Origin: a virus
Strand: one strand, 5' to 3'
IMG/VR virus record: IMGVR_UViG_3300033145_001546
Coordinates: 1 to 64,000 of that record
Length of the DNA stretch: 64,000 nt
Position numbers and translations under genes: made by a program. Under the pieces are notes generated by a model. That model made no database searches, was not told the DNA's origin, and saw only the letters and a program-made list of their open reading frames with translations. Every line of letters starts with the position of its first letter. The first letter of the stretch is position 1. Shown here one piece after another: positions 18,567 through 51,866 of the stretch.

Positions 18567-18860
18567 CTAATCCTTTACTTTATCACTTTTGTTATATTCA
18601 TCTTCGCTCATGCGTACCACTTTGCGAACAACCATTTTCCCATTGCCTTGAGACCAATTGCGAACCAAGGCCCTTTGCTTCATGGGTGACAAACTTGCGA
18701 ACCTGGCTTTCATAACGCTACGAACACGAGTCAGGGCCTGCAATGAATTGGGCCTATCCAATCGGGCCATATACTTACTGCCATCCCAATACGTCAACTT
18801 CACCACTTTGATCATTTCTGGCTCAAAGGACGATATTACTGTTTCAACTTTTTCTTTCAT
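18567..18860 (-). CDS. Hypothetical protein between terminase and portal
   Basis: 97 residues, basic: MKEKVETVISSFEPEMIKVV, then SKYMARLDRPNSLQALTRV. It overlaps the terminase large subunit by four bases and ends five bases before the portal start. Function not recognised. The tight packing supports that it is a real gene of the packaging operon. Confidence 0.6.
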   Translation of the reverse strand: MKEKVETVISSFEPEMIKVVKLTYWDGSKYMARLDRPNSLQALTRVRSVMKARFASLSPMKQRALVRNWSQGNGKMVVRKVVRMSEDEYNKSDKVKD

Positions 18861-20335
18861 CGTCTAAACACTGCTCCTAATATTAAATTGCCCGAAGTTA
18901 ATTGATTGAACGCACCACTTGATGCATCCACCTGGTCTTTATATCGGCTATTGGGAAAGAACTTCAACTCCTCCAAATAGGCCGTATTCCAATCGCCCTC
19001 TACCATAACCACATTCCCATTATTTACTTGCACTGAGAACGGGTCTGCCCTCAACTCTTTAGAGGCCTCACTGCCACTGGGCTTGTCTATTCTCACCCGG
19101 AAACCCGCCAACATTCTCACAGTCCTCTCCGCACTCTCTTTACCACCGCTGCCCGGTTCCTGCTCTACTCCTATATCTACGGCTGTAGTATCTATGCGGG
19201 CCGTGCGCAAAATGAGTTTCTCACGGGCAGCACTATCCAGTCTTAATCTCTCTAATCCATAAATCCAAAATCTCCCAGCCCTATCCTCCCCCATCTTCAA
19301 TCCCACAGTAAAAGCCCCCCGGCCTCCCAATGTAGCCGCCTTGTCCCAAAATCTAACTATCCGCTTCATTTTCTCCGGGGCAGACACAGCCAATTGTATT
19401 TTATCAGTTTGGAACATGCCCCCACCCGCAGGTATCGGAGTTTGCAAAAACTGGGAAGCGTAGTGGTAACCACCCTTGGCCTGCTGTTCCGTCAAAAACT
19501 TTCGGGTAATACGAACTGGATCCATCAAGCCATCTTTATACTTTTTCCTCAATTTCTTGGGCCTAATATCTTCCGTCACCTCTGCAGGCAGGCGAATGTG
19601 CTTAATACCCAGCTTGGTATTCTTGCTGCCCATCTCCCGTTCCATTCTCCGGACCTCTTGGGCCTCCTCTATCATATTGGTAGTACAATCATTTTGATGA
19701 AGCCGCTGCATTATGAGAATAGTAGGGGTAATGCTTTTATCTTTTTTCCGAGTGCTTAAAGTTGCACCCATCCACTCATTGGCAGTTTTCAATGTGACAT
19801 CACTGGCTGCCAGCTTGGGGTCCAATGGATCATCAATAACTATGAAATCAGCATGCTTGCCTGTAATAGAACCACCCACCCCCACTGCAATCCGTGTTCC
19901 ACGTTTCGTATTGTAAAACTGGCTTTTGGCCTTGGCGTCCGGTCTGATGACAACTTCTGGAAATATCCGCATATACTTATCACTCATTATGATATCACGG
20001 CTTTTGAGTGCTAAATCCATTGCTAATTCTGCACTATAGCTGCCTCCAATGAATCCTGCTGTAGGCATCCGGGTCCATATCCAAGGCGGCAAAAATACTG
20101 ACCCCACTGTAGACTTGGTAGAACCAGGAGATACATTTATAATAAGGTCATGAAGTTTATGCTTGCCAGCAAACACTCTTTCACAAACCTTTTGTATTGC
20201 ATCGCACATATACTCTACGTGCCAGTTCCATACAGGAGTTTTGGTTTCTATGGTATCCCAAAACTCTTTCACGAATTCATAGTAGCTTTCCCGGCATATA
20301 GATGCAACCAAGTTGTCTTCACTAACTTTTACCAT
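18857..20335 (-). CDS. terL: Terminase large subunit
   Basis: 492 residues. The ATPase has a deviant Walker A (NVSPGSTKST, residues 68-76) and Walker B IVIDDP (165-170). The C-terminal nuclease shows its acidic residues in RFWDKAA (D331), VEQEPGSGGK (E391, E393) and YKDQVDASSGAFNQL (D467, D470). This is the motor that cuts concatemers and pumps DNA through the portal. The relationship to P22/T4-like headful enzymes or others cannot be fixed without alignment. It overlaps the small subunit by 14 bases. Confidence 0.93.
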   Translation of the reverse strand: MVKVSEDNLVASICRESYYEFVKEFWDTIETKTPVWNWHVEYMCDAIQKVCERVFAGKHKLHDLIINVSPGSTKSTVGSVFLPPWIWTRMPTAGFIGGSYSAELAMDLALKSRDIIMSDKYMRIFPEVVIRPDAKAKSQFYNTKRGTRIAVGVGGSITGKHADFIVIDDPLDPKLAASDVTLKTANEWMGATLSTRKKDKSITPTILIMQRLHQNDCTTNMIEEAQEVRRMEREMGSKNTKLGIKHIRLPAEVTEDIRPKKLRKKYKDGLMDPVRITRKFLTEQQAKGGYHYASQFLQTPIPAGGGMFQTDKIQLAVSAPEKMKRIVRFWDKAATLGGRGAFTVGLKMGEDRAGRFWIYGLERLRLDSAAREKLILRTARIDTTAVDIGVEQEPGSGGKESAERTVRMLAGFRVRIDKPSGSEASKELRADPFSVQVNNGNVVMVEGDWNTAYLEELKFFPNSRYKDQVDASSGAFNQLTSGNLILGAVFRR

Positions 20336-21053
20336 CTTTTTTCTCGTCCCGTTTCCGGATAGCCTCTAATATAGCCTTACGCACCTCTATCGACAAATCT
20401 AAGGTGTCTATGTCCAGCGTATTGACCTCTACTGCTCCCCGCACATCTAACTCCACCTTCTCGTTATATCCCCTGTCTCGATTGATCGTCCTGTTCGCAA
20501 AGATAGTAGCACTACTATCACCACCTGCTATTAACTTAGCCAAATGATCCTCAAAGAAATTCTTTTTGTGCCAATGGATCTCATCCACCAGATTCGAGAA
20601 ATCACTATCATGCTCTTTCCACCGATTAAAGGTAGACCGGGATATATTCACTTTCCTCAATGCAGAACTAATCGAAAAGTTATTCACAGTCCAAGCATAG
20701 AAAAACAGATGTTGTCGCATGGTCTTGCCCCCAGCCACCAATATCCGCTCAATTTTCTCTACCCCTGCACCTGCTTTGTCCAATGCATTGATACGATCCC
20801 ATGCTTTCCTCACTTTCTTGCTTAACCGCTTATAAACATAGTCCGAAAAGACTGCAACTTTGCCATCCTCATTCTTATAAGCCTTTCGACCCATCCGTAA
20901 GGCCATTCTAAACATCTTTTTCTTTTTTTCCCAGGATACCAATGTGGCATGGGAAATCCCCAGAATTCCTGCAATCTTAGTTTCATTCAAACCACTGGAA
21001 GCTAACTCATAAGCTCGGAATATAAAAATGTCTTTCCATTTGGTAGTTGCCAT
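20322..21053 (-). CDS. Terminase small subunit
   Basis: 243 residues from the ATG at 21053, preceded by AGGAGATATAGGATT; a GTG 24 bases upstream is possible but lies before the ribosome site. Two helix-turn-helix segments are visible: SGLNETKIAGILGISHATLV (residues about 20-40) and FSISSALRKVNISRSTFNRW (about 125-145). The C-terminus (DTLDLSIEVRKAILEAIRKR) resembles the end of other phage small terminases that binds the large subunit. It is the first gene of the leftward operon, next to the divergent control region. Confidence 0.8.
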   Translation of the reverse strand: MATTKWKDIFIFRAYELASSGLNETKIAGILGISHATLVSWEKKKKMFRMALRMGRKAYKNEDGKVAVFSDYVYKRLSKKVRKAWDRINALDKAGAGVEKIERILVAGGKTMRQHLFFYAWTVNNFSISSALRKVNISRSTFNRWKEHDSDFSNLVDEIHWHKKNFFEDHLAKLIAGGDSSATIFANRTINRDRGYNEKVELDVRGAVEVNTLDIDTLDLSIEVRKAILEAIRKRDEKKDGKS

Positions 21054-22368
21054 AATCCTATATCTCCTATATAACACCTAAAAACCAATAAACCTTATGC
21101 AAATGCAAACACCCGAAAAATTATTTTTTTTAATAAACCACCAAGTCTTTTCCCAAAATTTTCTCTATATATAACGAGTGGCCATAGATGCATATTAAAA
21201 ACTTTATATTCTGCATAAGTACCTAAGTCTTTTTTCGACTTCTCTATTCGATTCTATTATAGTACATGCACGTCCGAATTATTCGTTTTTCGGACCGTAT
21301 ATCGACTTTCCCCGAATTTCCGACCCTTCATCATCCTTTCTACCCCTATAGTCTCTTTTCCCTATTCTTACCTATCTTAAGTCCGATATACTCCGATTCC
21401 TTTTTTCCTTTTCCTTTTTCTTCTCTACCCGATTTTCTACTTACCTATCCCCCGGTTTTTTTTCCTACTTCTTCTATCCTATAAGTTTGCATGTCTTTCG
21501 GGTATCCTTACCTAAAATAAACTCATGCATGCCTTACTCTTATATCCTTTTATCGACTTTCGATTCTTACCGTCTCCCTTCGATTCTAATAGACTTTTTC
21601 GTTTATCCATGGTATAGTATCGGTCGGGCTCCGTTCGTCGATTCTCGTCGAAATCGCCTTTTCTCGGACGGTATAATCTACCCGGTCTTTTCGTCTTCGT
21701 CCGGGAATTCTCGTACTATAGCTTTATAAGCTTTCGGGTCGTATAGAAAAAAGCTATTTTCTTAAAGATTTTTCGGCCTTTTCGATACCGTAAAGGACGA
21801 TTTTCGTTTTTTATCATTTTTCTTAAAGATTTTACTTTACTCGGACGATTAAAGTAGTATAATCTATATAGTCCGGGGGGTTTCCCGGACGGCTCTTTAA
21901 TACGCGAATATCGGCTTTAAGGTTTTTCGGGTTTCCCGGACGGTAGGATTTTCGGTCCGGTCCGGGAATTCGGAAAATCTAAAAGGGTCTTTTTACCGTA
22001 TCCGGGAAACCGATTTTTTCTTTCCGTTTACGACCGATAAGCTTTTATAACTAACCTCCGTTTTTCTTTTTAGGATTCTCGAAAAGGGTCCGGGACGTTT
22101 TCCGGACGGTCTATCCGAAAAGCGGAAAATAAGAAAAGGCGAATAACGGATAGTCGAAAGACGTCCGGAATTCCGAAAACGAAACGCCGATTTTATATCG
22201 GGGAAAAAACGGAATTCCGAACTATCGCGAAGACGAAGTAAGTCGCCGAAGAATATTCGACCGGCCCGGAAAGATATACGGTCCGGGGAAGGTTTTCGAT
22301 AACCTCCGGTCGATTCTTATTAGTAATAGAAAATCGAAAACTTTACTTTAAGCGAAAGGGAAAGAAAA
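21054..22368. other. Divergent non-coding control region (1.3 kb)
   Basis: The region separates the leftward virion operon from the rightward early operon, so both sets of promoters should lie here. The first 200 bases are AT-rich and ordinary. From about 21,260 on, TG and CA almost disappear. Between 21,817 and 22,368 there is no TG or CA at all, so no ATG, GTG, TTG or CTG exists on either strand. Several CCGGAC/GTCCGG hairpins occur (21,871-21,890 and 22,089-22,112). Short frames at 21,266-21,729 have no ribosome sites and are not called. An origin of replication could be here but no standard iteron set is seen. Confidence 0.7.
21835..21863 (+). promoter_or_regulatory. Possible early promoter
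   Basis: CTTTAC, 17 bases, then TATAAT (21858-21863) followed by CTATATAG. The -35 is poor, but a consensus TTGACA cannot exist here because it contains both TG and CA. TATAATCTA also occurs at 21672 and in the promoter at 29068-29096. Confidence 0.3.
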
Positions 22369-22375
22369 ATGAAAA
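22327..22375 (+). repeat. Leader duplicated in front of the first two early genes
   Basis: The block beginning AGAAAATCGAAAACTTTACT and running through GCGAAAGGGAAAGAAAAATG into the first codons occurs at 22327-22375 and again, identical, at 22685-22733. It carries the ribosome site and probably other expression signals of both genes. Confidence 0.85.
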
Positions 22376-22632
22376 CGAAAACGAAAATCGAAAACTATTT
22401 AGACGCTCTAAATTCTCTCGGTTTCGGAACGCCGTCTTCCGACGACGATTCCGGGACGATAATATTAGACTCCGGCGATATTATCGAATTATCGAAATTC
22501 GAGCGGGGCGGGAAGGTTTCGACCGAAGACCGAAAAGTCTCTTTTTATTTTTCCGGCGTCTCGGATCTTATCGAAATTCTCTCCGGCGGAAAAGTCGTAT
22601 ATACGACCGCCGGAGAGACCGACGAGTTTTAA
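22369..22632 (+). CDS. Early hypothetical protein 1
   Basis: 87 residues starting at the ATG behind AAGCGAAAGGGAAAGAAAA. No family is recognised. It contains no Cys, His, Gln or Trp and no Met except the first, because its DNA has no TG or CA after the start codon. Synonymous choices follow the same rule (no NCA, no GTG, TTG or CTG codons). The middle has DSGDIIELSKFERGGKVS and a strand-rich KVSFYFSGVSDLIEIL. It is the first gene of the rightward operon and could be an anti-host early protein. Confidence 0.7.
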   Translation: MKTKTKIENYLDALNSLGFGTPSSDDDSGTIILDSGDIIELSKFERGGKVSTEDRKVSFYFSGVSDLIEILSGGKVVYTTAGETDEF

Positions 22633-22647
22633 GAGTCTATAAAATAC

Positions 22648-22667
22648 GGTCCGAGAGAATCCGGACC
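22648..22667 (+). terminator. Intergenic hairpin 1 (GGTCCG/CGGACC)
   Basis: Stem GGTCCG and CGGACC with loop AGAGAATC, followed by GGTTTTTATACG, lies 15 bases after the first early gene. It is terminator-like. The same loop and arms return at 26317-26338, and GGTCCGG hairpins close most early genes. Confidence 0.5.
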
Positions 22668-22726
22668 GGTTTTTATACGCTTTTAAGAAAATCGAAAACT
22701 TTACTTTAAGCGAAAGGGAAAGAAAA

Positions 22727-22963
22727 ATGAAAACCGAAAAAACGGAAAAACGAGTAGAGTCGATTCTCGGAAAGGAAGCTTCGATTCTTTTCGATTCGGA
22801 ATTCGAGAGGATGGGGATTTTCCAGGTAGAGAATTCCGATTCGGAAAACGAAAAGTTACTTTCGGAATTTCTCTCGGCGGTCGGAAAAACGGTTTCGGAA
22901 ATCGACCGGGAAATTCTAAAAGGAATTATAAAAGAAGAATTAACCTATATAAACTCCTTCTAA
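22727..22963 (+). CDS. Early hypothetical protein 2
   Basis: 78 residues, charged and helical, starting MKTEKTEKRVESILGKEASI. It has one internal Met and one Gln and no Cys, His or Trp; these two codons hold nearly the only TG and CA steps in the neighbourhood. The end KGIIKEELTYINSF is a helix. Its leader is an exact copy of that of the preceding gene. No family is recognised. Confidence 0.7.
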   Translation: MKTEKTEKRVESILGKEASILFDSEFERMGIFQVENSDSENEKLLSEFLSAVGKTVSEIDREILKGIIKEELTYINSF

Positions 22964-22995
22964 TTCTCCTTTTCGAGTAAAAAGCCTATAGACTA

Positions 22996-23016
22996 CCGGA
23001 CCCGAAAAGGGTCCGG
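22996..23016 (+). terminator. Intergenic hairpin 2 (CCGGACCC/GGGTCCGG)
   Basis: An eight-pair stem with a GAAAA loop, followed by GTCTCTATACGCTTTT. It follows the second early gene and precedes the tandem repeats. Confidence 0.5.
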
Positions 23017-23018
23017 GT

Positions 23019-23102
23019 CTCTATACGCTTTTAGAGTAACTCTATACGCTTTTCGAGTAACTCTATACGCTTTTCGAGTAACTCTATACGCTTTTCGAGT
23101 AA
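23019..23102. repeat. Four tandem 21-bp repeats
   Basis: CTCTATACGCTTTTCGAGTAA is repeated four times head to tail; the first copy has AG in place of CG before AGTAA. The 21-bp period is two turns of the DNA helix, so identical faces would be presented to a binding protein. The repeat contains no TG or CA. Confidence 0.9.
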
Positions 23103-23105
23103 AAA

Positions 23106-23271
23106 GACGAATCGATTAAAGACGAATCGATTAAAGACGAATCGATTAAAGACGAATCGATTAAAGACGAATCGATTAAAGACGAATCGATTAAAGACGA
23201 ATCGATTAAAGACGAAAGACGAATCGATTAAAGACGAATCGATTAAAGACGAATCGATTAAAGACGAATCG
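23106..23271. repeat. Tandem 15-bp repeats (11 copies)
   Basis: GACGAATCGATTAAA is repeated with seven copies starting at 23106, a 7-base truncated copy at 23211, and four more from 23218. The last copy runs into the leader of the next gene. The arrays have no unique spacers. The element could be an iteron set, a protein-binding array or a variable-length spacer. Confidence 0.9.
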
Positions 23272-23293
23272 TATATTTTAGAAAGGGAAAGAA

Positions 23294-23542
23294 ATGAGTA
23301 AAAGAAAAAGCGTAGACGAGAAAATCGGGAATTTACTTCTTTCGGAAATATCGAAAGTCGATTTACTTTTTTCGATGTATACCGAATATTCCGAAAAACC
23401 GGAGATGGAAAAGCGAATAATCGAAGCGATAGTAATATATAATTCGCTTCGGGAAAGAAATCTTATCCCGGAAAATTCGGACGTAGAAGACTATAAATCG
23501 GCTTTCCCGAATATAAAAATGATTCCCCTAATGGAGGTATAA
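23294..23542 (+). CDS. Early hypothetical protein 3
   Basis: 82 residues starting MSKRKSVDEKIGNLLLSEIS. It is helical and has no Cys, His, Gln or Trp, though several Met. It starts behind TTTTAGAAAGGGAAAGAA, directly after the long 15-bp repeat array. No family is recognised. Confidence 0.65.
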   Translation: MSKRKSVDEKIGNLLLSEISKVDLLFSMYTEYSEKPEMEKRIIEAIVIYNSLRERNLIPENSDVEDYKSAFPNIKMIPLMEV

Positions 23543-23557
23543 AAAGCCTATAGACTA

Positions 23558-23578
23558 CCGGACCTTCTCCGGGTCCGG
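23558..23578 (+). terminator. Intergenic hairpin 3
   Basis: CCGGACC and GGTCCGG arms with loop TTCTCCG, inside the recurring block AAAAAGCCTATAGACTACCG. It is followed by GTCTCTATACGCTTTT and then two 15-bp repeat units at 23597-23630. Confidence 0.5.
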
Positions 23579-23661
23579 GTCTCTATACGCTTTTAAGACG
23601 AACCGAATTAAAGACGAACCGATTAAAGAATAATTGAAACTATTTTAGAAAGGGAAAGAAG

Positions 23662-23862
23662 ATGGAAAACGAAAAAGCGAAAAAATTTGGAGTAAAATGC
23701 TATCGACATGCTTCCTCAATTTTCGGAGAGGCGACCCGCTGGGCGAAAAAAGCCGATGGAAACCGTATCGAATTCGATACGGTAGAAGAAGCGGAAAGAT
23801 ACGCCGAAAAAAGAAATAACAAAGGAATCTTAAATTGCGAGTATTTCTTTAGCCGAATCTAA
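23662..23862 (+). CDS. Early hypothetical protein 4
   Basis: 66 residues, MENEKAKKFGVKCYRHASSI, with a basic, aromatic C-terminus (EYFFSRI). Composition is nearer normal than in the genes before it: Cys, His and Trp are present, each bringing a TG or CA. The central FDTVEEAERYAEKRN resembles a short alpha/beta motif seen in small DUF-type phage proteins, but no assignment is made. Confidence 0.65.
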   Translation: MENEKAKKFGVKCYRHASSIFGEATRWAKKADGNRIEFDTVEEAERYAEKRNNKGILNCEYFFSRI

Positions 23863-23892
23863 GCCACCGAAGTATAAAAAGCCTATAGACTA

Positions 23893-23913
23893 CCGGACCT
23901 TCTCCGGGTCCGG
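23893..23913 (+). terminator. Intergenic hairpin 4
   Basis: CCGGACC and GGTCCGG arms with loop TTCTCCG, in the same GCCTATAGACTACCG block as hairpin 3, followed by the second 21-bp repeat array. Confidence 0.5.
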
Positions 23914-23915
23914 GT

Positions 23916-24020
23916 CTCTATACGCTTTTCGAGTAACTCTATACGCTTTTCGAGTAACTCTATACGCTTTTCGAGTAACTCTATACGCTTTTCGAGTAAC
24001 TCTATACGCTTTTCGAGTAA
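23916..24020. repeat. Five tandem 21-bp repeats
   Basis: Five exact copies of CTCTATACGCTTTTCGAGTAA, the same unit as at 23019-23102. Copy number differs between the two arrays (four and five), as expected for slippage or unequal recombination. Confidence 0.9.
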
Positions 24021-24023
24021 GAA

Positions 24024-24107
24024 GACGAACCGATTAAAGACGAACCGATTAAAGACGAACCGATTAAAGACGAACCGATTAAAGACGAACCGATTAAAGA
24101 CGAACCG
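24024..24107. repeat. Six tandem 15-bp repeats, variant unit
   Basis: GACGAACCGATTAAA occurs six times; it differs from the 23,106 array by one base (AACCG for AATCG). Two-copy versions of the variant stand at 23597-23630 and 24510-24540, also between a hairpin and a ribosome site. Confidence 0.9.
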
Positions 24108-24130
24108 TATATTTTAGAAAGGGAAAGAAG

Positions 24131-24451
24131 ATGAAAACGAAAGAGTTTATGAAATTAGTCGAAAAGGCGATGAAGAAAATCGAATCGGAAAACGTCGAAG
24201 AACTAATCGAAAAAGCCGAAGATTATTGGGAATCCGGTATAGCTATTCGATTTTCGCCGATGGATGAAGAAAATGAGACGGAAATCGACGGAGTATATTC
24301 CGAAGAGAAAATTGAATTCGAGCGGCTCCGATGGTTGGCTGCTGCTTGGGCTTCCGTACTTAAAACCCGAAAACTCTTAGAAGGTCATCCATCGGCGAAA
24401 TTAGACGAAATCGAAAACGACTTAAAAGGAGACTTAATAGACGTTCTTTAG
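24131..24451 (+). CDS. Early hypothetical protein 5
   Basis: 106 residues, acidic and helical: MKTKEFMKLVEKAMKKIESE, then a middle IRFSPMDEENETEIDG and a Trp-rich RLRWLAAAWASVLKTRKLL. No Gln or Cys; several Met and Trp. TG steps are more frequent here than in genes 1-3, marking the fading edge of the depleted island. No family is recognised. Confidence 0.65.
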   Translation: MKTKEFMKLVEKAMKKIESENVEELIEKAEDYWESGIAIRFSPMDEENETEIDGVYSEEKIEFERLRWLAAAWASVLKTRKLLEGHPSAKLDEIENDLKGDLIDVL

Positions 24452-24470
24452 AATAAGAGCCTATAGACTA

Positions 24471-24491
24471 CCGGACCCGAAAAAGGTCCGG
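24471..24491 (+). terminator. Intergenic hairpin 5
   Basis: CCGGACC and GGTCCGG arms with loop CGAAAAA, following the same CCTATAGACTA block, then GTCTCTATACGCTTTT and two 15-bp repeat units (24510-24540). Confidence 0.5.
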
Positions 24492-24573
24492 GTCTCTATA
24501 CGCTTTTAAGACGAACCGATTAAAGACGAACCGATTAAAGAATAATTGAAACTATTTTAGAAAGGGAAAGAAG

Positions 24574-26384: not shown

Positions 26385-27380
26385 ATGACACCGAAAGAAT
26401 TGAAGAGTGCCTTGCTCAAAGCCATGCCCGCCAAGTTGCCTATACTAATCAAAGGTGCACCCGGCATTGGCAAGAGTGACATCGTGGAGCAAGTGGCGAA
26501 AGAACTGAAGATGGACTTGATTATATCGCATCCAGTTGTATCAGACCCCACAGACGCAAAAGGCCTGCCCGCAATCGTGGACGGCAAAGCCGAATTCCTA
26601 CCGTATGGAGATTTGAGACAGATGATGGAGGCGAAAAAGCCCACAATCGTCTTTTTGGATGATTTGGGGCAGGCTCCAGCTGTAGTTCAGGCAGCATTCA
26701 TGCAGCTGATTCTTGCCAGACGGGTGAATGGGCACAAGGTTTCCAAACACATCGTTTTTGTCGCAGCAACAAATCGACGTCAAGACAGAGCAGGTGTAAC
26801 AGGTATTTTGGAGCCAGTCAAGAGTCGGTTTGCTTCCATCGTGGAATTGGAAGCAGATGCTCAAGAGTGGATCGAGTGGGCACTGGATAATGACGTGCCG
26901 ATGGAGGTCATTGGCCTGATTCACTATCAACCGAGCATGCTGACTGCGGGACAGCCCACCGCCGATATAGTCAACCACCCATGCCCACGCACAATCGCAT
27001 ATGCCGGCAAACTCATCAAAGCAGGTATGGACTCATTTGAGGAATTAAGTGGAGCACTGGGACAGACGGGTGCAGCAAGTCTGAAAGGTTTCATGGACGT
27101 GTATCGCAGTTTGCCGGACTTGGATGAGATTATAGACCATCCAGACACGACCGATGTGCCTACAGAGCCCAGTGCGCTATACGCCACAGCAATGGCATTA
27201 GTGGAAAAGGCTACACCCGAAAATGTGGCCTCAATTTTCACCTATGTCAAGAGATTTTCCCGGCAGACGGCAGATGTGGGTGTCTTTCTCGTGAAAGACC
27301 TCATTAAGAAAAACCCGAAAATCCAAAACACAACAGCATTCATCCAGTGGGCATCTGACCACGCTGACATGCTATTGTAG
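26385..27380 (+). CDS. MoxR-type AAA+ ATPase
   Basis: 331 residues. Walker A is GAPGIGKSD (residues 24-32), Walker B VFLDDLGQA (89-97), and an arginine-finger/sensor region follows VFVAATNRRQDRAGV. The overall architecture is the short MoxR/RavA-like AAA+ without a fused domain. MoxR proteins work with VWA-domain partners as remodelling chaperones; here the partner is the following gene. The third member, DUF3150-like, lies upstream, and all three share the GAAAGGGAAAGA leader. Confidence 0.85.
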   Translation: MTPKELKSALLKAMPAKLPILIKGAPGIGKSDIVEQVAKELKMDLIISHPVVSDPTDAKGLPAIVDGKAEFLPYGDLRQMMEAKKPTIVFLDDLGQAPAVVQAAFMQLILARRVNGHKVSKHIVFVAATNRRQDRAGVTGILEPVKSRFASIVELEADAQEWIEWALDNDVPMEVIGLIHYQPSMLTAGQPTADIVNHPCPRTIAYAGKLIKAGMDSFEELSGALGQTGAASLKGFMDVYRSLPDLDEIIDHPDTTDVPTEPSALYATAMALVEKATPENVASIFTYVKRFSRQTADVGVFLVKDLIKKNPKIQNTTAFIQWASDHADMLL

Positions 27381-36344: not shown

Positions 36345-36398
36345 ATTGGTTTGGGTTGCTGTTGCTTTCCCTTCGGCAACCCAAACCCAATTTTTTTG
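36345..36398 (+). terminator. Strong intrinsic terminator
   Basis: TTGG-TTTGGGTTGC and GGCAACCCAAA-C-CCAA pair in a 14-base stem with one bulged C around the loop TGTTGCTTTCCCTTC, followed by TTTTTTTG. It ends the transcript of the preceding gene. Confidence 0.85.
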
Positions 36399-36432
36399 TT
36401 TGCTAATTTTGTGGCGTGGTTGGGACCCAAAC

Positions 36433-37506
36433 GTGAAAAATAAATCTACAACACGGACGTATGGTGCTGCAGTAAGTGTGCGAGGGGACTGTTTGTACTG
36501 TCCTCTTCCTTTAAGTATTGACTCATATTTCAATTGCCTAACCGATTGTCACCATTGTTATTCACGCCGATTAAACCGCACGTGGGGCACAGACCTTAGA
36601 CCTGCCGACCCGGAACAAGTGCGAAAGAAACTTGAAAATGGATTGAAAAATAAAAATCCCCGGTCATCATTGGCTTGGGCTTTGAGACATAAGAAAACCT
36701 TGCGATTAGGCAACCGCACTGATCCATACCAAGATGCAGAAATGGAACATGAAGTTACTCGTAGGATTCTCAGACATTTGATTGATTTGGAGTGGACCTT
36801 TGTTATTCAAACTAAATTCTTAAACAACATGACACGGGATTGGGAACTGTTACAAGAGGCGGCAAAGAAGGAACTGCTAATTGTCATGCCTATCATAACG
36901 CCGGGGGGCTCATACGATTGGAAGGTGTTGGAAAGAAAGAGGACTTCATCCATTGCTACCAGATTAAACATTATCCGCCAAATGATAGATGCTGGTTGGC
37001 ACGTGGGGGTGAATGGAGAGCCTTTCATTCCCGGACTTCATACCATACATCAATTCCAAAAGATAATAAGACGATTGAAAGAGGTCGGGGTGTGTAGTTA
37101 TAATACCTATAATCTCCACCTCAATGACTACGTGGCCAAGCAGTTGCATTCTATCGGATTAGACATCGAGAAAATATGGACGATGAATCAGGATAAGAAC
37201 TGGGCCCCAATTCAAAAGGAACTCTGTTGCATAGCCCAACAGGAAGGAATGATTTTAGGATGCCCTGATTTCGTCAATACTGGACCGGATTGGAGGGAAC
37301 GAACTAACACGTGTTGTGGCATCCGGGTCCCAAATCCGTCCAAGTTCAATACCCATACTTGGAAACGACGATTGCAACGGGGGAAACCTGCCAACAGAGT
37401 TTTGAGAGGGACGTGGGAGGGGATAGGAGATAAGGAATTAGGCAAAAAGATAGTCAAGGGTGTGCCTTGCGATAATTATACGATGAAAGACGCAGGAATG
37501 ATTTGA
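36433..37506 (+). CDS. Radical SAM protein (SPL-like) 1
   Basis: 357 residues from a GTG at 36433; an upstream in-frame start would lie in the terminator. The cluster motif is C35-x3-C39-x2-C42 (NCLTDCHHCYS) with an SPL-type RRLNRTWG after it. Later segments (LGNRTDPYQDAE, FVIQTKFLNN, VMPIITPGGSYD) match the SPL/radical SAM barrel. No B12 or SPASM domain is visible; the end is KGVPCDNYTMKDAGMI. It is followed, with a four-base overlap, by the PLP enzyme, suggesting a shared pathway. The start and ribosome site are uncertain. Confidence 0.75.
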   Translation: MKNKSTTRTYGAAVSVRGDCLYCPLPLSIDSYFNCLTDCHHCYSRRLNRTWGTDLRPADPEQVRKKLENGLKNKNPRSSLAWALRHKKTLRLGNRTDPYQDAEMEHEVTRRILRHLIDLEWTFVIQTKFLNNMTRDWELLQEAAKKELLIVMPIITPGGSYDWKVLERKRTSSIATRLNIIRQMIDAGWHVGVNGEPFIPGLHTIHQFQKIIRRLKEVGVCSYNTYNLHLNDYVAKQLHSIGLDIEKIWTMNQDKNWAPIQKELCCIAQQEGMILGCPDFVNTGPDWRERTNTCCGIRVPNPSKFNTHTWKRRLQRGKPANRVLRGTWEGIGDKELGKKIVKGVPCDNYTMKDAGMI

Positions 37507-38366
37507 TAAGAAAAAATACTCCAATTGAAACTTACGATGTCCGGGGAAGGACGGTGTATGTTAAAAGGGAGGACCTGTGCACTGAGCCTCCAGGTCCCCC
37601 TTTTAGCAAATGCCGGGGGCTGTATGCCAAATTGAAAAAGATGCGGGACGAGGGCGTGGAAGTAGTTGGTTATGTAGAGACCCCAATTTCGATGGCGGGC
37701 TGGGGTGTGGCGTGGATAGCAAAAAAATTAGGTTTGAAAGCTGTAATCTTTGATCCACAATACCTCCACACACCCCCCGCCACCATTTTGATACATAGAG
37801 AAAAGTGGAAACAATACAACCCTGATATTATCCCCATTACAGCTGGAATGACCTGTGTGAATCAGCACATTGCAAAGAAGATGCTGAAAAAAGAGTATGG
37901 ACGGAAAGCTGTGATGCTTCCTATCGGCATCCCTTTTCAAGAGACAATAGAGGAAACGAGCAAAGAATTTCTGCGACTCGTAGGAAAAAAACCATGGTTA
38001 TTTCTTAAGCATATTGTGGTTTGTGTGGGGTCCGGAACGATTTGTTCCGGGCTGTTGAAAGCCCTGCAAGGAATAGGAGGAGATATAGAATTGATAGGGG
38101 TGATGGCCTACGATAAAAATATGAGGAAGAAAAGGAAGTCTATTTTCATCAAAGCTGGGGCGAAGGACCAAGGCACCCTTTTCCCCTCCAAAGTAGATTT
38201 CAGATTAGTAAATGAGAAATGGGAATACACCGAATCGTCAACTGTTGACTGCCCTTTCCCTTGTCATGCTTACTACGACTTGAAAGCATGGGAATGGCTG
38301 GTGAAGAATATTCACACTTTGAAAGGGACAGTACTGTTTTGGAATATAGGGAGTGAAGCAGTGTGA
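37503..38366 (+). CDS. PLP-dependent enzyme (fold type II, ACC deaminase-like)
   Basis: 287 residues. The opening VYVKREDLC then FSKCRGLYAKLKKM places Lys36 where D-cysteine desulfhydrase/ACC deaminase relatives hold the catalytic Lys (NKxRKL). The Ser-rich contact SMAGWGVAWIAKKLGLKAVI and the phosphate-binding GSGTICSGL follow. Such enzymes act on small amino acids. It overlaps the radical SAM gene before and the split radical SAM gene after by four bases each, so the three are translated together. Function in the phage is unknown; a role in base or nucleotide modification is possible. Confidence 0.72.
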   Translation: MIRKNTPIETYDVRGRTVYVKREDLCTEPPGPPFSKCRGLYAKLKKMRDEGVEVVGYVETPISMAGWGVAWIAKKLGLKAVIFDPQYLHTPPATILIHREKWKQYNPDIIPITAGMTCVNQHIAKKMLKKEYGRKAVMLPIGIPFQETIEETSKEFLRLVGKKPWLFLKHIVVCVGSGTICSGLLKALQGIGGDIELIGVMAYDKNMRKKRKSIFIKAGAKDQGTLFPSKVDFRLVNEKWEYTESSTVDCPFPCHAYYDLKAWEWLVKNIHTLKGTVLFWNIGSEAV

Positions 38367-39601
38367 GTTATTATGACCTGAGAGCCGAAGTTGCTAAAAT
38401 CATACCCCGTGTGCAATCTCTACGCACTAAGAAGCAGGCCCCCAAGCCTGTAAAGGAAAAGGGACGCAAAAGTGGGTACTCCGAATTCAAGCTCAATGTT
38501 GGAAATTGGGTAAAGCAAGAGCGATTGTTGAACACACAAGAGGTTAATTCCTTTGTCGAGGTAAGTTGTAGGGCCGCAGCCTGTCCCATGCCATTGAATT
38601 TGGATGTATGGGATGGGCTGCTTTGTGTTGCAAAGGGACAAATGATAACTACTCAGAGAGGTGAAAAAAGAATCGAGGACGTAAAAGTCGGAGACATGGT
38701 ATTATCCTTTAATGAGTCTTCTAAAATTTTGGAATGGAAGGAAGTCATCCAAACAAATTCGACAATCAAAAGAAATATGATAGACATCGAAACGGAAAAA
38801 GGAATTCTGACAGTAACAGCGGACCACCCTGTTTATACTCAAAGGGGATGGATTGGGGCGGGGGACTTAAAAGAAACTGATTATATTTACGAGCAAGCCA
38901 AAAAAATACCTTGGAACAAAGGAATCCCCAGAACTCTAAAGGAAAAAAAGAACATCAGTAGTGGTATATCTAAAGAATCCCGAATGAAAAGCTCCAAGCG
39001 AATGAAACATCTTTGGAAAAAGGGAAAATACAAAGATCATGTGGGGAAAACTAATCCATCTAAAAGGCCCGAAGTTGCTCGTAAAATAGGGGAAGCTAAC
39101 CACAGAAGAAAAGTGACCGAAGTTACGAGAGAAAAGATAAGACAAAGTAAATTGGGAAAACCTGGTCCTGCTGTTTCGGAAAAGACTAAAAAATTATATT
39201 CCGAAAGAATGAAACGGGACAATCCTATGCATAGAAAGGAAGTATTAGAAAATCATCCCGTATTAAAGACGGGCAGATATTACATATCTCAGGGAGAGAA
39301 AACTTTATCAATCTTATTTCAAAAAATGAAATTGAAATATAAGCACCAAAAACAAATGGCGAAAGAGATTGGTTATTACACAGTTGATTTTTTCTTTCCT
39401 AAATATAATAAGATCATAGAATTCGACGGACATCAAAGTCATAGAGAGCATCCCGAAAAGGACGAAAAAAGGGATGCTTATATAAAAAAACGCTATGGAT
39501 ACACTACTTTGAGGATAGTTCCAATGGAATTAAATAATACGAATCGACCTAAATTGCTCTCCAAAATAAGGAATTTTCTGGATGGAGTTGAAGAGGCTTA
39601 A
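38363..39601 (+). CDS. Radical SAM protein 2, N-extein plus split intein N-half and Vsr-like endonuclease
   Basis: 412 residues in three parts. Residues 1-87 are the N-extein of a radical SAM enzyme, ending LNLDVWDGLL. Residue C88 begins an intein: CVAKGQMITTQRGEKRIEDV is block A, and TVTADHPVYTQRGW (H155) block B. Residues about 180-300 are Lys/Arg-rich NUMOD-like repeats. Residues about 305-410 resemble a DUF559/Vsr endonuclease: VDFFFPKYNKIIEFDGHQSH, then a RD..., TTLRIVPMEL pattern. The frame stops at 39601. The intein C-half is supplied by the overlapping gene at 39582. Confidence 0.88.
   Translation: MSYYDLRAEVAKIIPRVQSLRTKKQAPKPVKEKGRKSGYSEFKLNVGNWVKQERLLNTQEVNSFVEVSCRAAACPMPLNLDVWDGLLCVAKGQMITTQRGEKRIEDVKVGDMVLSFNESSKILEWKEVIQTNSTIKRNMIDIETEKGILTVTADHPVYTQRGWIGAGDLKETDYIYEQAKKIPWNKGIPRTLKEKKNISSGISKESRMKSSKRMKHLWKKGKYKDHVGKTNPSKRPEVARKIGEANHRRKVTEVTREKIRQSKLGKPGPAVSEKTKKLYSERMKRDNPMHRKEVLENHPVLKTGRYYISQGEKTLSILFQKMKLKYKHQKQMAKEIGYYTVDFFFPKYNKIIEFDGHQSHREHPEKDEKRDAYIKKRYGYTTLRIVPMELNNTNRPKLLSKIRNFLDGVEEA
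38624..39601 (+). other. Intein N-half with homing endonuclease
   Basis: From C88 (codon 38624-38626) to the stop: the HINT N-segment, NUMOD-like basic repeats and a Vsr/DUF559-like nuclease domain. The nuclease is fused to the N-half rather than lying as a separate gene between the two halves. Confidence 0.85.
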
Positions 39602-39701
39602 AATCAAAAGTCTTCGTAAATATCGTAAGAAAACGACAGTTTATGATATTACGGTGAAAGATAATTCCAACTTTTTTGCCGGGGGAGTTTTGGTTCATAA
39701 T
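39582..39701 (+). other. Intein C-half (IntC, 40 residues)
   Basis: Length and composition match natural split IntC peptides: a short charged start, a DIxV strand, and a terminal VHN followed by Cys. The overlap of 20 bases with the IntN gene is in a different frame, so translation must reinitiate here. Confidence 0.85.
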
Positions 39702-40841
39702 TGCCCCTTCGGTTGTAAATATTGTTATGCAAATGCTTTCCGGGCCTCCCTATATACGGCATTCTTTGATAACGCCAAGACGATGGGCATGCGGCATTGC
39801 AATCCTAAGAAGTACAAAAAGGAAATGGACATCCTGCTAAAAGTCCGGGGCAAGGACCCACACGATATCAAAGGGGATGTAGCCAAGGCCATAGCAATGG
39901 AAATTCCTATCCGGTTTGGAATACGATTTGAGGACTTCTTGGCAGAGGAGGCCGAAGCAGGAATCAGCTTAGAGATGCTGGAGTATTTGGCTGATAATGA
40001 ATACCCACTAATGATAAACACCAAGGCCGATTTAGTAGGCAAGAAACGGTATGTCCGGGCCTTGTCCCGAAATAAAGGCAAGACAGCAGTTCATATTACT
40101 TTGATAAGTAGCAACGAGAAACTGTTGGCCGAATTAGAACCAGGGGCACCGACTTACGAAAGACGGATATGGGCAATGAAGAGACTATCTGATGCAGGGG
40201 TGAGAGTGGTAGCTCGGATAGAACCATACTTGCCTTTCTTGACAGATGATCCCTCAGAAGTGTCTATGTATATGGAAGACTTGAAAGCAATTGGTGTGAA
40301 ACACATCACTTTCGATGCTTATTCATACACAGCTAAAAATCCGGGCATCAAGCAATCTTTTGTCAACGCCGGGATAGATTACGAGAGGATGGTTTTGGTA
40401 GGTTGTGATTCTCAGGCATTGGGAAGTTTGATGCTGGGAGAATTCATGAAGATATTTCGGAAAAACGGGTTCAGCTGCTCCACCTTTGATATGGGGAATG
40501 CACCGGACAACGACGACTCTATATGTTGCGAGGTAGGGAACTGGTTTAAGGGTGGATATAACTATGGGTGTACTGTATACGCAGCCAGATTCATCAAGCA
40601 GCGTGGCAGTAAGAGCACTTCGTGGGGCGACTTTGAGGGTTGGGTGAATGAAAAAGGTGGATTCTTGTCCGAGACCTTAAAAAGAGAGGTGCACGAACTT
40701 TGGAACTGTCAGGGGAACAGTGCCTATTCGCATTCGTGGGCCAGAGGCATGGTAGCTGTAGGGAGCGACCGGAATGGGTTGGTTTGGAAATTCGATGATA
40801 GTGATTTTAGGCAGGACATTTTGGAGAATTTGAAAGGATAA
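39582..40841 (+). CDS. Radical SAM protein 2, split intein C-half plus C-extein
   Basis: 419 residues. Residues 1-40 form a typical IntC: MELKRLKIKSLRKYRKK then VYDITVKDNSNFFAGGVLVHN, ending in H39-N40. Residue 41 is the first C-extein residue, Cys, and is also the first Cys of the radical SAM cluster: C41-x3-C45-x2-C48 (CPFGCKYCYA). The rest is an SPL-like barrel (KADLVGKKRYVRALSRNKG, ITLISSNEKLL). AAGGAATTTTCTGG precedes the ATG, so it has its own ribosome site. Protein splicing in trans would join 87 and 379 residues into a 466-residue enzyme. The fractured enzyme is needed in one piece, since the cluster lies at the splice junction. Confidence 0.88.
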   Translation: MELKRLKIKSLRKYRKKTTVYDITVKDNSNFFAGGVLVHNCPFGCKYCYANAFRASLYTAFFDNAKTMGMRHCNPKKYKKEMDILLKVRGKDPHDIKGDVAKAIAMEIPIRFGIRFEDFLAEEAEAGISLEMLEYLADNEYPLMINTKADLVGKKRYVRALSRNKGKTAVHITLISSNEKLLAELEPGAPTYERRIWAMKRLSDAGVRVVARIEPYLPFLTDDPSEVSMYMEDLKAIGVKHITFDAYSYTAKNPGIKQSFVNAGIDYERMVLVGCDSQALGSLMLGEFMKIFRKNGFSCSTFDMGNAPDNDDSICCEVGNWFKGGYNYGCTVYAARFIKQRGSKSTSWGDFEGWVNEKGGFLSETLKREVHELWNCQGNSAYSHSWARGMVAVGSDRNGLVWKFDDSDFRQDILENLKG

Positions 40842-40845
40842 GAAG

Positions 40846-41232
40846 ATGAATAAGGAAAAAGACAAAAAATCGAATGCCGGTAAAGATTATGGAAAGGACG
40901 AATATAATTTCATATTTTTCTGTATGATTAGGAGTATCTTGCCTATAAACATTTGTAGAGCGTTGGGCAGAAAAAACGAGCAAGTCATCATTTCCGCTTT
41001 TCGTCGTATTTGCCTTGATGCCTCTGCTTATCAAAACAAGAAAATATATGAGTTGAAGCCCTGCACTGACAGACCCTATCTACACTTAAATGGGCCAGCT
41101 AAGTTCTTCATATATCAACAATGCATAGTCCGAATGAAAAGCATCCGATTAGTTTCCCAACAAACCAGCATTCCCATGAGTCTCATAAATAGACACATTG
41201 AAGAAGGTGAATATGTAAAGGAATTCAAATGA
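40846..41232 (+). CDS. Hypothetical protein
   Basis: 128 residues, basic, MNKEKDKKSNAGKDYGKDEY, then FCMIRSILPINICRALGRKN. Late section has RLVSQQTSIPMSLINRHIEE, which could be a helix-turn-helix. No family is recognised. It overlaps the next gene by four bases. Confidence 0.55.
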   Translation: MNKEKDKKSNAGKDYGKDEYNFIFFCMIRSILPINICRALGRKNEQVIISAFRRICLDASAYQNKKIYELKPCTDRPYLHLNGPAKFFIYQQCIVRMKSIRLVSQQTSIPMSLINRHIEEGEYVKEFK

Positions 41233-41945
41233 AAAAAGATAATTTCCGAATTGAGAATATTTTTGCTCACGCTGCGGCTTTGCAACAGAGTGGTCGGCTG
41301 CGCAATACTATATACGGTTTGAAAAAATTTGTATATATTATGAATCAGGACTTCACCGTGCTCTTGCGATTTCCTTTGAGAGCACAGGAAAACCCTTTTG
41401 ATTCTCCTATATCCTTTGCAGCAAACGATTATGACAGTCCCATATTTGAAGAGCGAGACGGCAAGATATGTTTCATTCAAAAGCATGGGGACTTCGTGCG
41501 AGAGAAAAGCTGCCGCATTCCCGGACAGTCCGCAACCGATGTCCAAAAGACGTTTAAGAGTTTTGCAACTTCTGTCAAAAATAAAAACAAAGTTACTCTC
41601 AACCGAGACTTTGTGAAGTGTCTGGACGAAAGTTTGAGCCACGTGGAGTTTAGCGTGCGTAAAGGACGCTTGAAAATTAAGCAGCGAAACATCTATGATG
41701 GAAGTGTCATCACCGTTACCAAAAAGAAAAAGGCAGGATTAGGCGTGACCTCCGATGCCAAATTAAAATCCTTCAAGCCAATAGGTATAAGGACTAATGA
41801 TTTGTTAGCCCTGTTTGCCTTTGCAGGAAGCGTCTCTTTTTACTTTTCCAAAAAAGGAATCACATGGATAGAGAGTGAGGACCGGAAAATGCTTTTCACA
41901 GGCATTATAAGTCAATGTATATATGACGAGTTAGGAGTTACCTAA
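41229..41945 (+). CDS. Hypothetical protein, weakly clamp-like
   Basis: 238 residues. The N-terminal half is helical, and the C-terminal (RTNDLLALFAFAGSVSFYFS, then ITWIESEDRKMLFTGIISQ) has a strand pattern like the last domain of a sliding clamp or similar phage DNA-associated proteins. The likeness is weak and no motif is decisive. It could also be a transcription accessory factor. Confidence 0.5.
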   Translation: MKKDNFRIENIFAHAAALQQSGRLRNTIYGLKKFVYIMNQDFTVLLRFPLRAQENPFDSPISFAANDYDSPIFEERDGKICFIQKHGDFVREKSCRIPGQSATDVQKTFKSFATSVKNKNKVTLNRDFVKCLDESLSHVEFSVRKGRLKIKQRNIYDGSVITVTKKKKAGLGVTSDAKLKSFKPIGIRTNDLLALFAFAGSVSFYFSKKGITWIESEDRKMLFTGIISQCIYDELGVT

Positions 41946-41949
41946 AAAG

Positions 41950-42087
41950 ATGAAGGACTTAATGGAAGAAGCGAAAGATGCAATTTCGGCTCTATACAGC
42001 GATATGGACGTAGACCAAAGTGTTACAAAGGAACGCATGGAAGAATTGAAGGGTTTTATCAACGACATGGTCGATGCGTTAGGTTAG
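41950..42087 (+). CDS. Small acidic helical protein (45 aa)
   Basis: 45 residues, MKDLMEEAKDAISALYSDMD, from an ATG five bases after the previous stop. It is strongly acidic and helical. No AAAGG-type ribosome site precedes it, so it may be translated by reinitiation. No family. Confidence 0.5.
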   Translation: MKDLMEEAKDAISALYSDMDVDQSVTKERMEELKGFINDMVDALG

Positions 42088-42099
42088 AAGGGTAATAAT

Positions 42100-42261
42100 A
42101 TGGCTGGTGGTAAGAGTAGAAAAAGTGGTGGTGTGAGTAAGGCCTTAATAAATAGATTAGTTGGAAAGAAAACCGGAAATGGAAGATCCAAGACTGACAA
42201 AAGAGGACTATTGGGAAGCAGTAAAAAATCAAAATCTGATGCCAAACTTCTGGATGACTGA
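42100..42261 (+). CDS. Small basic Gly/Lys/Ser-rich protein (53 aa)
   Basis: 53 residues, MAGGKSRKSGGVSKALINRL. AGAAGGGTAATAAT gives a fair ribosome site. It overlaps the following acyltransferase-like gene by 83 bases in another frame, which is unusual and lowers confidence. If real it may bind nucleic acid. Confidence 0.4.
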   Translation: MAGGKSRKSGGVSKALINRLVGKKTGNGRSKTDKRGLLGSSKKSKSDAKLLDD

Positions 42262-42994
42262 CGAGTATATCGAAAAGGCCGGTTTGATTTGGCATGAAGA
42301 TGAAGAGACCAAATACTGTGGGTGGTTGCATCCTGAATACAATACTGAGATATGCCCAAAACATTCGGAGTGGATGTTCCCGCCTATGACTTATAAAAGA
42401 CATTTTGTCCTAATGGGGAATGTCTACTCCGGCTTTCCCAAAAATCCATGTATGAATTATGAAAGCAATGAAGAATTCTTAGACTATCAATATATTTACA
42501 ACCCTGTAGATTTTATGTTTTTGGCGGGGCATAAATGGAAAGCATTTAGAAAAATCCTCCGACAATATCGTGAGAGAGTAGATGGAAAGCAGAAATACAT
42601 GAAAATAGCTTCAGATACTTTCCAAGATGCTATTGCTAAATTGCTTCTGAAGTGGGCAGGGGAAAAGGAATTTTTCGATAATGAGGTGATGATAAAGTAT
42701 GCCTTAGAGGGAGAGAACAGGTGGGGGATGTTCACAGATGAAAAATTGGTAGGATTGAATATCTGGGACGAGAATTTCATGTTTGTCAACTATCGATACT
42801 GTATAGATGATGGCACCCCCGGTCTCAATAGATATTTGCGGTACCATTTTTATACTCAAGGGGCAATTCCGAGCAAACAAAAACTTATCAATGACGGCGG
42901 TTCGCTGGGGGACGAAGGATTAAGAGAATTTAAGTTGAGACTAAATCCTCATGTCGTATACACAGTAACATCTTATAAACAAGAGAAACCATGA
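42179..42994 (+). CDS. Acyltransferase-like protein (GNAT/DUF2156-like)
   Basis: 271 residues from the ATG at 42179. The pattern GHKWKAFRKILRQYRERV, LVGLNIWDENFMFVNYRYC and GTPGLNRYLRYHFYTQGA, then NDGGSLGDEGLREFKLRLNP matches the duplicated-GNAT fold of DUF2156/phosphatidylglycerol lysyltransferase-like proteins. It would transfer an acyl or aminoacyl group to an unknown acceptor. It overlaps the PAPS-reductase-like gene by four bases. A copy of its last 30 bases lies downstream of that gene, hinting that the latter was inserted. Confidence 0.65.
   Translation: MEDPRLTKEDYWEAVKNQNLMPNFWMTDEYIEKAGLIWHEDEETKYCGWLHPEYNTEICPKHSEWMFPPMTYKRHFVLMGNVYSGFPKNPCMNYESNEEFLDYQYIYNPVDFMFLAGHKWKAFRKILRQYRERVDGKQKYMKIASDTFQDAIAKLLLKWAGEKEFFDNEVMIKYALEGENRWGMFTDEKLVGLNIWDENFMFVNYRYCIDDGTPGLNRYLRYHFYTQGAIPSKQKLINDGGSLGDEGLREFKLRLNPHVVYTVTSYKQEKP
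42961..42990 (+). repeat. Duplicated 3' end of acyltransferase gene, copy 1
   Basis: The bases encoding TVTSYKQEKP at the end of the acyltransferase gene recur at 43871-43900 with three differences in 30 bases, all at synonymous third positions. The pair flanks the PAPS-reductase-like gene. Confidence 0.85.
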
Positions 42995-44901: not shown

Positions 44902-45044
44902 AAAAAGAATTCATATTTCCAATCTTGTTAATTATTATGGACCTCTGTGCTGCTATTGTTTACGGTGTGGACTTCTCTGAGAACTGGCGGAAAGTTTTGT
45001 ATTGGTTAGGAGCAGCACTCTTAACTTTTGTGGTGACATTTTGA
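44898..45044 (+). CDS. Small membrane protein (48 aa)
   Basis: 48 residues with two hydrophobic helices (IFPILLIIMDLCAAIVYG and LYWLGAALLTFVVTF). It overlaps the clamp stop (ATGA) and its own stop overlaps the TTG start of the methyltransferase. Probably real because of this coupling. Role unknown. Confidence 0.5.
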   Translation: MKKEFIFPILLIIMDLCAAIVYGVDFSENWRKVLYWLGAALLTFVVTF

Positions 45045-51711: not shown

Positions 51712-51866
51712 TAGATGACATTAAAATTATAACATTCATTTGTGGACTTCCTTTTTTGGTTTACTTTTGTGTGAAGTTTGGCACTGTGGCCTTTTTCAAG
51801 GCAAAACAATTTATAGAAAAACAAAAAACAGGAGACACAAGCAATGAGCAAAAGAAAGAAGCGTAA
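51708..51866 (+). CDS. Small membrane protein (52 aa)
   Basis: 52 residues, MIDDIKIITFICGLPFLVYF, with one transmembrane helix and an acidic/Lys tail. Its ATG overlaps the previous stop, and it overlaps the SSB start by 23 bases. Role unknown. Confidence 0.45.
   Translation: MIDDIKIITFICGLPFLVYFCVKFGTVAFFKAKQFIEKQKTGDTSNEQKKEA

What the first reader, a model, noticed from the sequence alone, without database searches (positions are those of the whole stretch)
21260..24560. Island nearly free of TpG and CpA on both strands
Between 21,817 and 23,294 only four TG/CA steps occur before the next start codon (two are start ATGs, one an internal ATG, one CA), where about 185 would be expected if all dinucleotides were equally common. 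CG is raised (24 in 180 bases at 22,081-22,260). The rule holds in non-coding DNA, repeats and coding DNA, including wobble positions (no NCA, no NTG codons) and codon boundaries. All NTG start codons on either strand contain TG, so the island excludes stray translation starts; it also lacks any TTGACA. Alternatives are an A-to-G change at CpA (both strands), which would turn CA/TG into CG, or avoidance of a nuclease or modification acting on these steps. No known phage feature I can name explains it.
Basis: partly seen in the sequence, partly recalled or inferred. Interest (0 to 1): 0.93.

Follow-up and report, generated by a model that had tools for sequence, protein, structure and literature searches.

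The report
Phage control region purged of TG
A few related uncultivated phages have removed almost every TG/CA base step, in genes and between them, from the stretch where their early and late genes diverge; this looks like selection against that two-letter step, perhaps because the phage's own unusual DNA-modifying enzymes act there.

Summary
Window 21,817-23,293 holds 4 TG/CA steps where the rest of this 77-kb phage contig predicts about 200. All four are unavoidable: two start ATGs, one Met, one Gln. Three consecutive ORFs carry exactly the minimum number their proteins allow (1, 3, 5; codon usage predicts 22-27 each). Flanks are normal. Avoidance of the step itself fits best.

I found the same kind of island in three other uncultivated phages: G017 (same gene order) and G058 (different terminase) clearly, G063 weakly. 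In the first three it lies where late and early genes diverge. All four carry a five-gene module absent as a block from three otherwise collinear phages: two SplB-like radical-SAM enzymes, a PLP enzyme orthologous to phage M6 gp52 (thymidine-hypermodification pathway), a PCNA-like clamp and a FemX/MprF-fold transferase. Hypermodified T in M6-type phages sits in TG/TC (published). Best explanation (0.4): base modification at TpG/CpA, with the control region kept modification-free. Against: most module carriers, including close relative G002, have no island, and no modification has been measured.

The parts
21817..23293 (.). Core of the TG/CA-free island (4 TG/CA, about 200 expected), coding and non-coding
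21215..21816 (.). Left shoulder, non-coding: 15 TG/CA against about 81 expected; 12 are ATG/CAT, mostly in an ATGCA/TGCAT cluster that continues left to 21,097 (9 words in 450 nt, 0.8 expected), probably a regulatory-site array
23294..24573 (.). Right shoulder: non-coding parts almost TG/CA-free, coding parts increasingly relaxed
21648..21677 (+). Promoter-like site with TATAAT (10 of 12 matches, no TG in the -35 box); consensus match only
21836..21863 (+). Promoter-like site with TATAAT (10 of 12 matches); consensus match only
22369..22632 (+). Small ORF, 87 aa, unknown; 1 TG/CA = theoretical minimum, 26.5 expected; no H, Q, W, C or internal M
   Evidence: no PHROG match
22727..22963 (+). Small ORF, 78 aa, unknown; 3 TG/CA = theoretical minimum, 21.6 expected
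23294..23542 (+). Small ORF, 82 aa, unknown; 5 TG/CA = theoretical minimum (all Met codons), 24.7 expected
23662..23862 (+). Small ORF, 66 aa; 10 TG/CA (minimum 5, 20.7 expected)
24131..24451 (+). Small ORF, 106 aa; 15 TG/CA (minimum 8, 35.5 expected)
23019..23276 (+). TG-free tandem arrays (CTCTATACGCTTTTCGAGTAA and AAAGACGAATCGATT units); related arrays at 23,920-24,115
20322..21077 (-). Terminase small subunit, first leftward (late) gene; not depleted here (the syntenic TerS of G017 is)
18857..20335 (-). Terminase large subunit
26385..27380 (+). MoxR-type AAA ATPase, syntenic anchor right of the island
36346..37506 (+). Module gene 1: radical SAM enzyme, SplB-like; profile match to the M6 gp53 family (probability 96.5%)
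37503..38366 (+). Module gene 2: PLP enzyme orthologous to Pseudomonas phage M6 gp52 (34% over 290 aa, E 5e-46)
38363..40841 (+). Module gene 3: second SplB-like radical SAM enzyme, interrupted by an intein with a DUF559 nuclease; two overlapping frames 38,363-39,601 and 39,582-40,841
41229..41945 (+). Module gene 4: PCNA-like sliding-clamp fold (model pLDDT 84.9)
42161..42994 (+). Module gene 5: FemX/MprF aminoacyltransferase fold (model pLDDT 80.5)
45002..46321 (+). DNA methyltransferase, N4/N6 type; alternative candidate modifier

Best explanation
The island is the product of long-term selection against the double-stranded step TpG/CpA in the region where late and early transcription diverge, and in the first early genes. 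It is not a mutational scar. The most likely selecting agent is the phage's own DNA modification: a five-gene module (two radical-SAM enzymes, an M6-gp52-like PLP enzyme, a PCNA-like clamp and a FemX-fold transferase) is inferred to modify a base in TpG/CpA, and the control region plus the leader and first early genes are kept free of such sites so that they stay unmodified and readable by host RNA polymerase or another factor that needs unmodified DNA. Shown: the step-specific depletion on both strands down to the protein-imposed minimum; the failure of one-way mutation models; recurrence in other phages at the same functional place; presence of the module in all four. Inferred: that the module modifies DNA, that its target is TpG/CpA, and that lack of modification is what is selected.
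For: Three ORFs sit exactly at the TG/CA minimum allowed by their proteins while non-coding DNA of the core is at zero. Forcing CA/TG to CG gives 57% GC at once and 71% in a simulated steady state, whereas pure avoidance with the flank's own sequence habits gives 39-41%; 41% is observed. Second island in G017, same synteny: 121 TG/CA against 368 expected over 2,551 nt including the TerS gene (44 against 92), with CG and TA both about doubled and all NTG contexts hit equally. Third island in G058, different terminase: 3 TG/CA in a 182-aa first early gene (minimum 2, 44 expected). Weaker fourth in G063, upstream of its early genes. All four encode all five module genes; no island in about 2.3 Mb of records without the module. 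The module is missing as a block between otherwise collinear genes in G026, G027 and G029. The PLP enzyme has GenBank phage homologues only in M6/YuA-type phages and a few Bordetella, Stenotrophomonas, Rhizobium and Pseudanabaena phages; those examined carry thymidylate synthase and hypermodification genes. PMC6449724 reports that hypermodified T in M6, ViI and phiW-14 sits in TG or TC and that the M6 5hmdU kinase acts on TG.
Against: Most module carriers show no island, including the near-collinear G002 whose rSAM enzymes are 66% identical. TC, the other hypermodified context in M6-type phages, is enriched, not avoided. The upstream enzymes of the known thymidine pathway (dUMP hydroxymethylase, 5hmdU kinase, aGPT-Pplases) were not found in the contig, so the chemistry would have to differ. 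In the window CG is favoured over TA beyond what pure avoidance predicts (0.103 against about 0.06). The module-island association is statistically modest, since two of the islands were found by searching for the module. No modification was measured.
Confidence: 0.4

Rival explanations
1. Avoidance of a nuclease or defence factor (host or phage) that cuts or recognises TpG/CpA. Only this region is exposed, for example because it lies at the genome end that enters the cell first, or is unprotected early in infection.
For: The island lies directly upstream of the terminase small subunit, where cos/pac ends often lie (general knowledge), and fades on both sides. Step-specific avoidance on both strands fits a duplex cutter.
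Against: A two-base cutter would be toxic or would need protection of the rest of the genome, which leads back to modification. Physical ends were not located. No candidate nuclease was identified.
Confidence: 0.2
2. A localised mutator (for example adenine deamination at CpA, giving CpG) acts on this region.
For: CG is strongly raised; leader elements in the core read TCGAAAAC where shoulder copies read TTGAAAC.
Against: One-way CA-to-CG predicts 57-71% GC, observed 41%. In G017 and G058 TA rises as much as CG. No strand asymmetry. Start and Met codons are kept perfectly.
Confidence: 0.1
3. RNA-level selection: early transcripts avoid UG and CA because an RNase or RNA-binding factor acts on them.
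For: The strictest part spans promoter-like sites, the leader and the first genes, and relaxes downstream.
Against: In the window both UG and CA are lost from both the rightward and the leftward side of the divergence, and in G017 also from the oppositely transcribed TerS gene; one duplex-DNA step explains this more simply than two RNA dinucleotides.
Confidence: 0.1
4. Exclusion of stray translation starts and -35 boxes.
For: No stray NTG start and no TTGACA on either strand in the core.
Against: CTG/CAG is removed as completely as ATG, GTG and TTG. Tandem repeats and coding interiors are purged too. TATAAT boxes are kept.
Confidence: 0.06
5. Assembly artefact or foreign DNA.
For: Unusual composition; metagenomic contig.
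Against: ORFs, ribosome-binding leaders (GAAAGGGAAAG) and hairpins are those of this phage, and islands recur in independent assemblies.
Confidence: 0.02

Closest known systems
Thymidine hypermodification of M6/YuA-type phages (5-NedU) and of ViI and phiW-14
   Same: Orthologous PLP enzyme (M6 gp52) and related SplB-like radical SAM enzyme; published modification context TG/TC
   Different: No dUMP hydroxymethylase, 5hmdU DNA kinase or aGPT-Pplase found here; extra PCNA-like clamp, FemX-fold protein and second rSAM; M6, MW2, Pam3, RHph_I72, Bhz59 and phiW-14 stretches read here have no comparable island
Restriction-site avoidance in phage genomes
   Same: Selective loss of a short motif without protein change
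   Different: A dinucleotide, removed to zero, and only in 0.7-3.4 kb of the genome
CpG islands and CpG/UpA suppression in vertebrates and RNA viruses
   Same: A single dinucleotide class dominates local composition
   Different: The missing step is TpG/CpA, in DNA phages, without a one-way mutational explanation

Membership tests
Known thymidine hypermodification pathway (5hmdU-derived) | PLP enzyme of the M6 gp52 family | tested here: met
   34% over 290 aa, E 5e-46; invariant residues shared along the whole length
Known thymidine hypermodification pathway (5hmdU-derived) | SplB-like radical SAM enzyme of the gp53 family | tested here: inconclusive
   Distant: profile probabilities 96.5% (rSAM1) and 87% (rSAM2); direct tblastn E 0.026
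Known thymidine hypermodification pathway (5hmdU-derived) | Thymidylate-synthase-like dUMP hydroxymethylase | tested here: not met
   No match by profile search of six-frame ORFs of the contig or relatives; the contig may be incomplete
Known thymidine hypermodification pathway (5hmdU-derived) | 5hmdU DNA kinase and aGPT-Pplase | tested here: not met
   No significant match; a weak hit to module gene 4 was disproved by hhalign and fold
Known thymidine hypermodification pathway (5hmdU-derived) | Modified nucleoside in virion DNA | not testable with these tools
   Needs DNA; uncultivated phage
One-way context mutation (CpA to CpG) | GC content rises and only CG accumulates | tested here: not met
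   GC 41% against at least 57% predicted; TA also rises in G017 and G058
Avoidance of the TpG/CpA step by selection | Loss on both strands, coding and non-coding, down to the protein-imposed minimum, with GC near the avoidance expectation | tested here: met
Avoidance of the TpG/CpA step by selection | Fitness cost of individual TG/CA sites | not testable with these tools
   Needs population data or variants of a laboratory phage

The most novel reading that the evidence does not exclude
These phages carry a new, clamp-coupled DNA hypermodification pathway acting at TpG/CpA that does not go through 5hmdU, and some of them have evolved a modification-free control zone by deleting every target dinucleotide, even at the cost of amino-acid choice.
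Probability: 0.33. Interest if true: 0.93.

Novelty: categorically new. Interest (0 to 1): 0.85.

Why it matters
I know of no described genome segment in which a common dinucleotide has been removed to the limit set by the encoded proteins, and paper searches found none. It reveals a strong, local and step-specific selective force in phages, gives a sequence signature that can be scanned for in any genome, and points to a phage-restricted five-gene module as a candidate new DNA base-modification system whose target context could be read from the sequence alone.

Tried and rejected
(1) blastn of the island against 50,697 phage records: no match; the hairpin and leader patterns found nothing in viral contigs. 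(2) PHROGs/Pfam on the island ORFs: nothing solid. (3) Idea that M6-type phages have mild TG dips in promoter regions: intergenic DNA of ordinary phages such as T7 dips as much, dropped. (4) T-to-A loss inferred from TTTTGAAAGGG against TTTTAGAAAGGG leaders: G002 has TTAGAAAGG, so the A form may be ancestral; not used. (5) Module gene 4 as a pyrophosphorylase: disproved. (6) Greater tolerance of ATG/CAT as enzyme context: seen in the window's left shoulder but not in G017 as a whole; more likely ATGCA regulatory sites. (7) A gene shared by island phages and missing from island-less carriers: none clear; the methyltransferase 45,002 matches G017 and G058 only over a part and weakly. (8) Rfam: no match. 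(9) Papers on TpG/CpA-depleted islands or localised hypermutation in phages: none found.
Full report
Observation. The window belongs to an uncultivated virus record of 77,255 nt. Between 21,817 and 23,293 there are four TG/CA steps against about 200 expected at the rate of the rest of the window. All four are imposed by the code: two ATG starts, one Met, one Gln. Outside 21,215-24,573 no TG/CA-free run in the window exceeds 49 nt and no 1-kb window of the contig has rho(TG) under 0.78.

How complete it is. Against random synonymous recoding with the phage's own codon usage, ORFs 22,369, 22,727 and 23,294 should hold 26.5, 21.6 and 24.7 TG/CA; they hold 1, 3 and 5, which is exactly the minimum possible for their proteins. 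The next two genes hold 10 (minimum 5) and 15 (minimum 8); the genes after 24,574 are normal. His, Gln, Trp, Cys and Met, whose codons force TG or CA, are nearly absent from the first two proteins. That the proteins stay open and start with ATG suggests that they are real genes under constraint.

Mutation or selection. If CpA simply became CpG, GC would be 57% at once and about 71% in a simulated steady state; the island has 41%. Forbidding TG/CA while keeping the flank's other habits predicts 39-41% GC and much of the rest of the profile. One residue remains: in the window CG is favoured over TA more than expected. The two strands are depleted alike. CTG/CAG is lost as completely as ATG, GTG and TTG, which argues against a start-codon explanation.

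Relatives. A scan with a MoxR alignment returned contig IMGVR_UViG_3300009171_000001 (G017, 73,759 nt), collinear with the window (TerL, TerS, small genes, MoxR, VWA). It has its own island at the same place: 2,551 nt with 121 TG/CA against 368 expected, covering the oppositely oriented TerS gene (44 against 92), the leader and the first early ORF (6 against 32). There CG and TA both about double, and all NTG contexts are hit equally, so the dinucleotide itself is the unit avoided. A scan with the radical-SAM gene led to G058 (92,221 nt, no detectable match to the window's TerL or MoxR), where 37,454-38,186 has 3 TG/CA and a 182-aa first rightward gene carries 3 (minimum 2, 44 expected), and to G063, a weaker case at the upstream end of its early genes. 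In the window, G017 and G058 the island lies at the late/early divergence.

The module. Between the DnaB-like helicase and the DnaN-like clamp the window has five genes that are missing as a block from three otherwise collinear phages (G026, G027, G029): two SplB-like radical SAM enzymes, a PLP enzyme, a protein with a PCNA fold and a protein with the FemX/MprF aminoacyltransferase fold. The second radical SAM gene is interrupted by an intein. The PLP enzyme is orthologous to gp52 of Pseudomonas phage M6 and in GenBank phages occurs only in M6/YuA-type and a few similar phages; those examined carry hypermodification genes. In M6, ViI and phiW-14 the hypermodified thymidine sits in TG or TC, and the M6 kinase acts on TG (PMC6449724). 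The role of M6 gp52 and gp53 in that pathway is from my own knowledge of the literature, not from a paper read here. The first radical SAM gene gave 46 viral loci and a single hit among 84,980 cellular genomes, in a 13-kb MAG contig, so the module is close to virus-restricted. A clamp plus amino-acid-type chemistry suggests modification of newly made DNA, but this is inference. The upstream enzymes of the known thymidine pathway were not found, so this is not filed as a member of that pathway.

Association. Every record with an island carries all five module genes (G000, G017, G058, G063). About 2.3 Mb of records without the module held none, except L189, which is a fragment of G017 whose module lies outside it. 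The association is not tight: about twenty other module-carrying contigs, including the close relative G002, show no island (some are fragments), and two islands were found through the module itself. The module may be necessary but is clearly not sufficient.

Reading. The best-supported statement is that a selective force removes TpG/CpA from the late/early divergence region of some phages; my confidence in avoidance over one-way mutation is about 0.85. The most likely agent is base modification at that step by the five-gene module, with the control region kept unmodified (0.4). A nuclease or defence factor acting at the same step on exposed DNA is the main rival (0.2). What would settle it is a measurement of modified bases and their context.

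Noticed in passing
window 36346-42994: Five-gene module (rSAM, PLP enzyme, rSAM, PCNA-like clamp, FemX-fold protein) shared by dozens of uncultivated phages and absent as a block from collinear relatives; candidate new DNA modification system.
   Followed up: partly
window 38363-40841: The second radical SAM gene is interrupted by an intein with a DUF559 nuclease and is read in two overlapping frames, possibly a split intein.
   Followed up: no
window 21097-21535: Cluster of nine ATGCA/TGCAT words (0.8 expected) across the left edge of the island, next to the terminase small subunit; possible operator or packaging/replication site.
   Followed up: partly
window 23019-23276 and 23920-24115: Tandem arrays of 15- and 21-nt TG-free units and a conserved hairpin (ACCGGACC...GGTCCGGGT) between the small early genes.
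   Followed up: no
window 52501-53000: Repeat-like stretch in the gene with an SSB match (51,844-53,100): CG raised (1.90), TA 0.17, AA and CC low, TG normal.
   Followed up: no
L256 487-1512: Only cellular-genome hit of the radical SAM gene: a 13-kb contig of a Thioalkalivibrio MAG, possibly a phage contig; a hint at a host group.
   Followed up: no
L009 72-7764 (contig 64072-71764): Long run of minus-strand genes that look like sugar/glycan enzymes (epimerase-, methyltransferase- and glycosyltransferase-like), between tail-type genes.
   Followed up: no
G029 2001-2650 (L211): Short TG-poor stretch (rho about 0.5) near the RecA/SSB genes of a phage without the module; four windows only.
   Followed up: no
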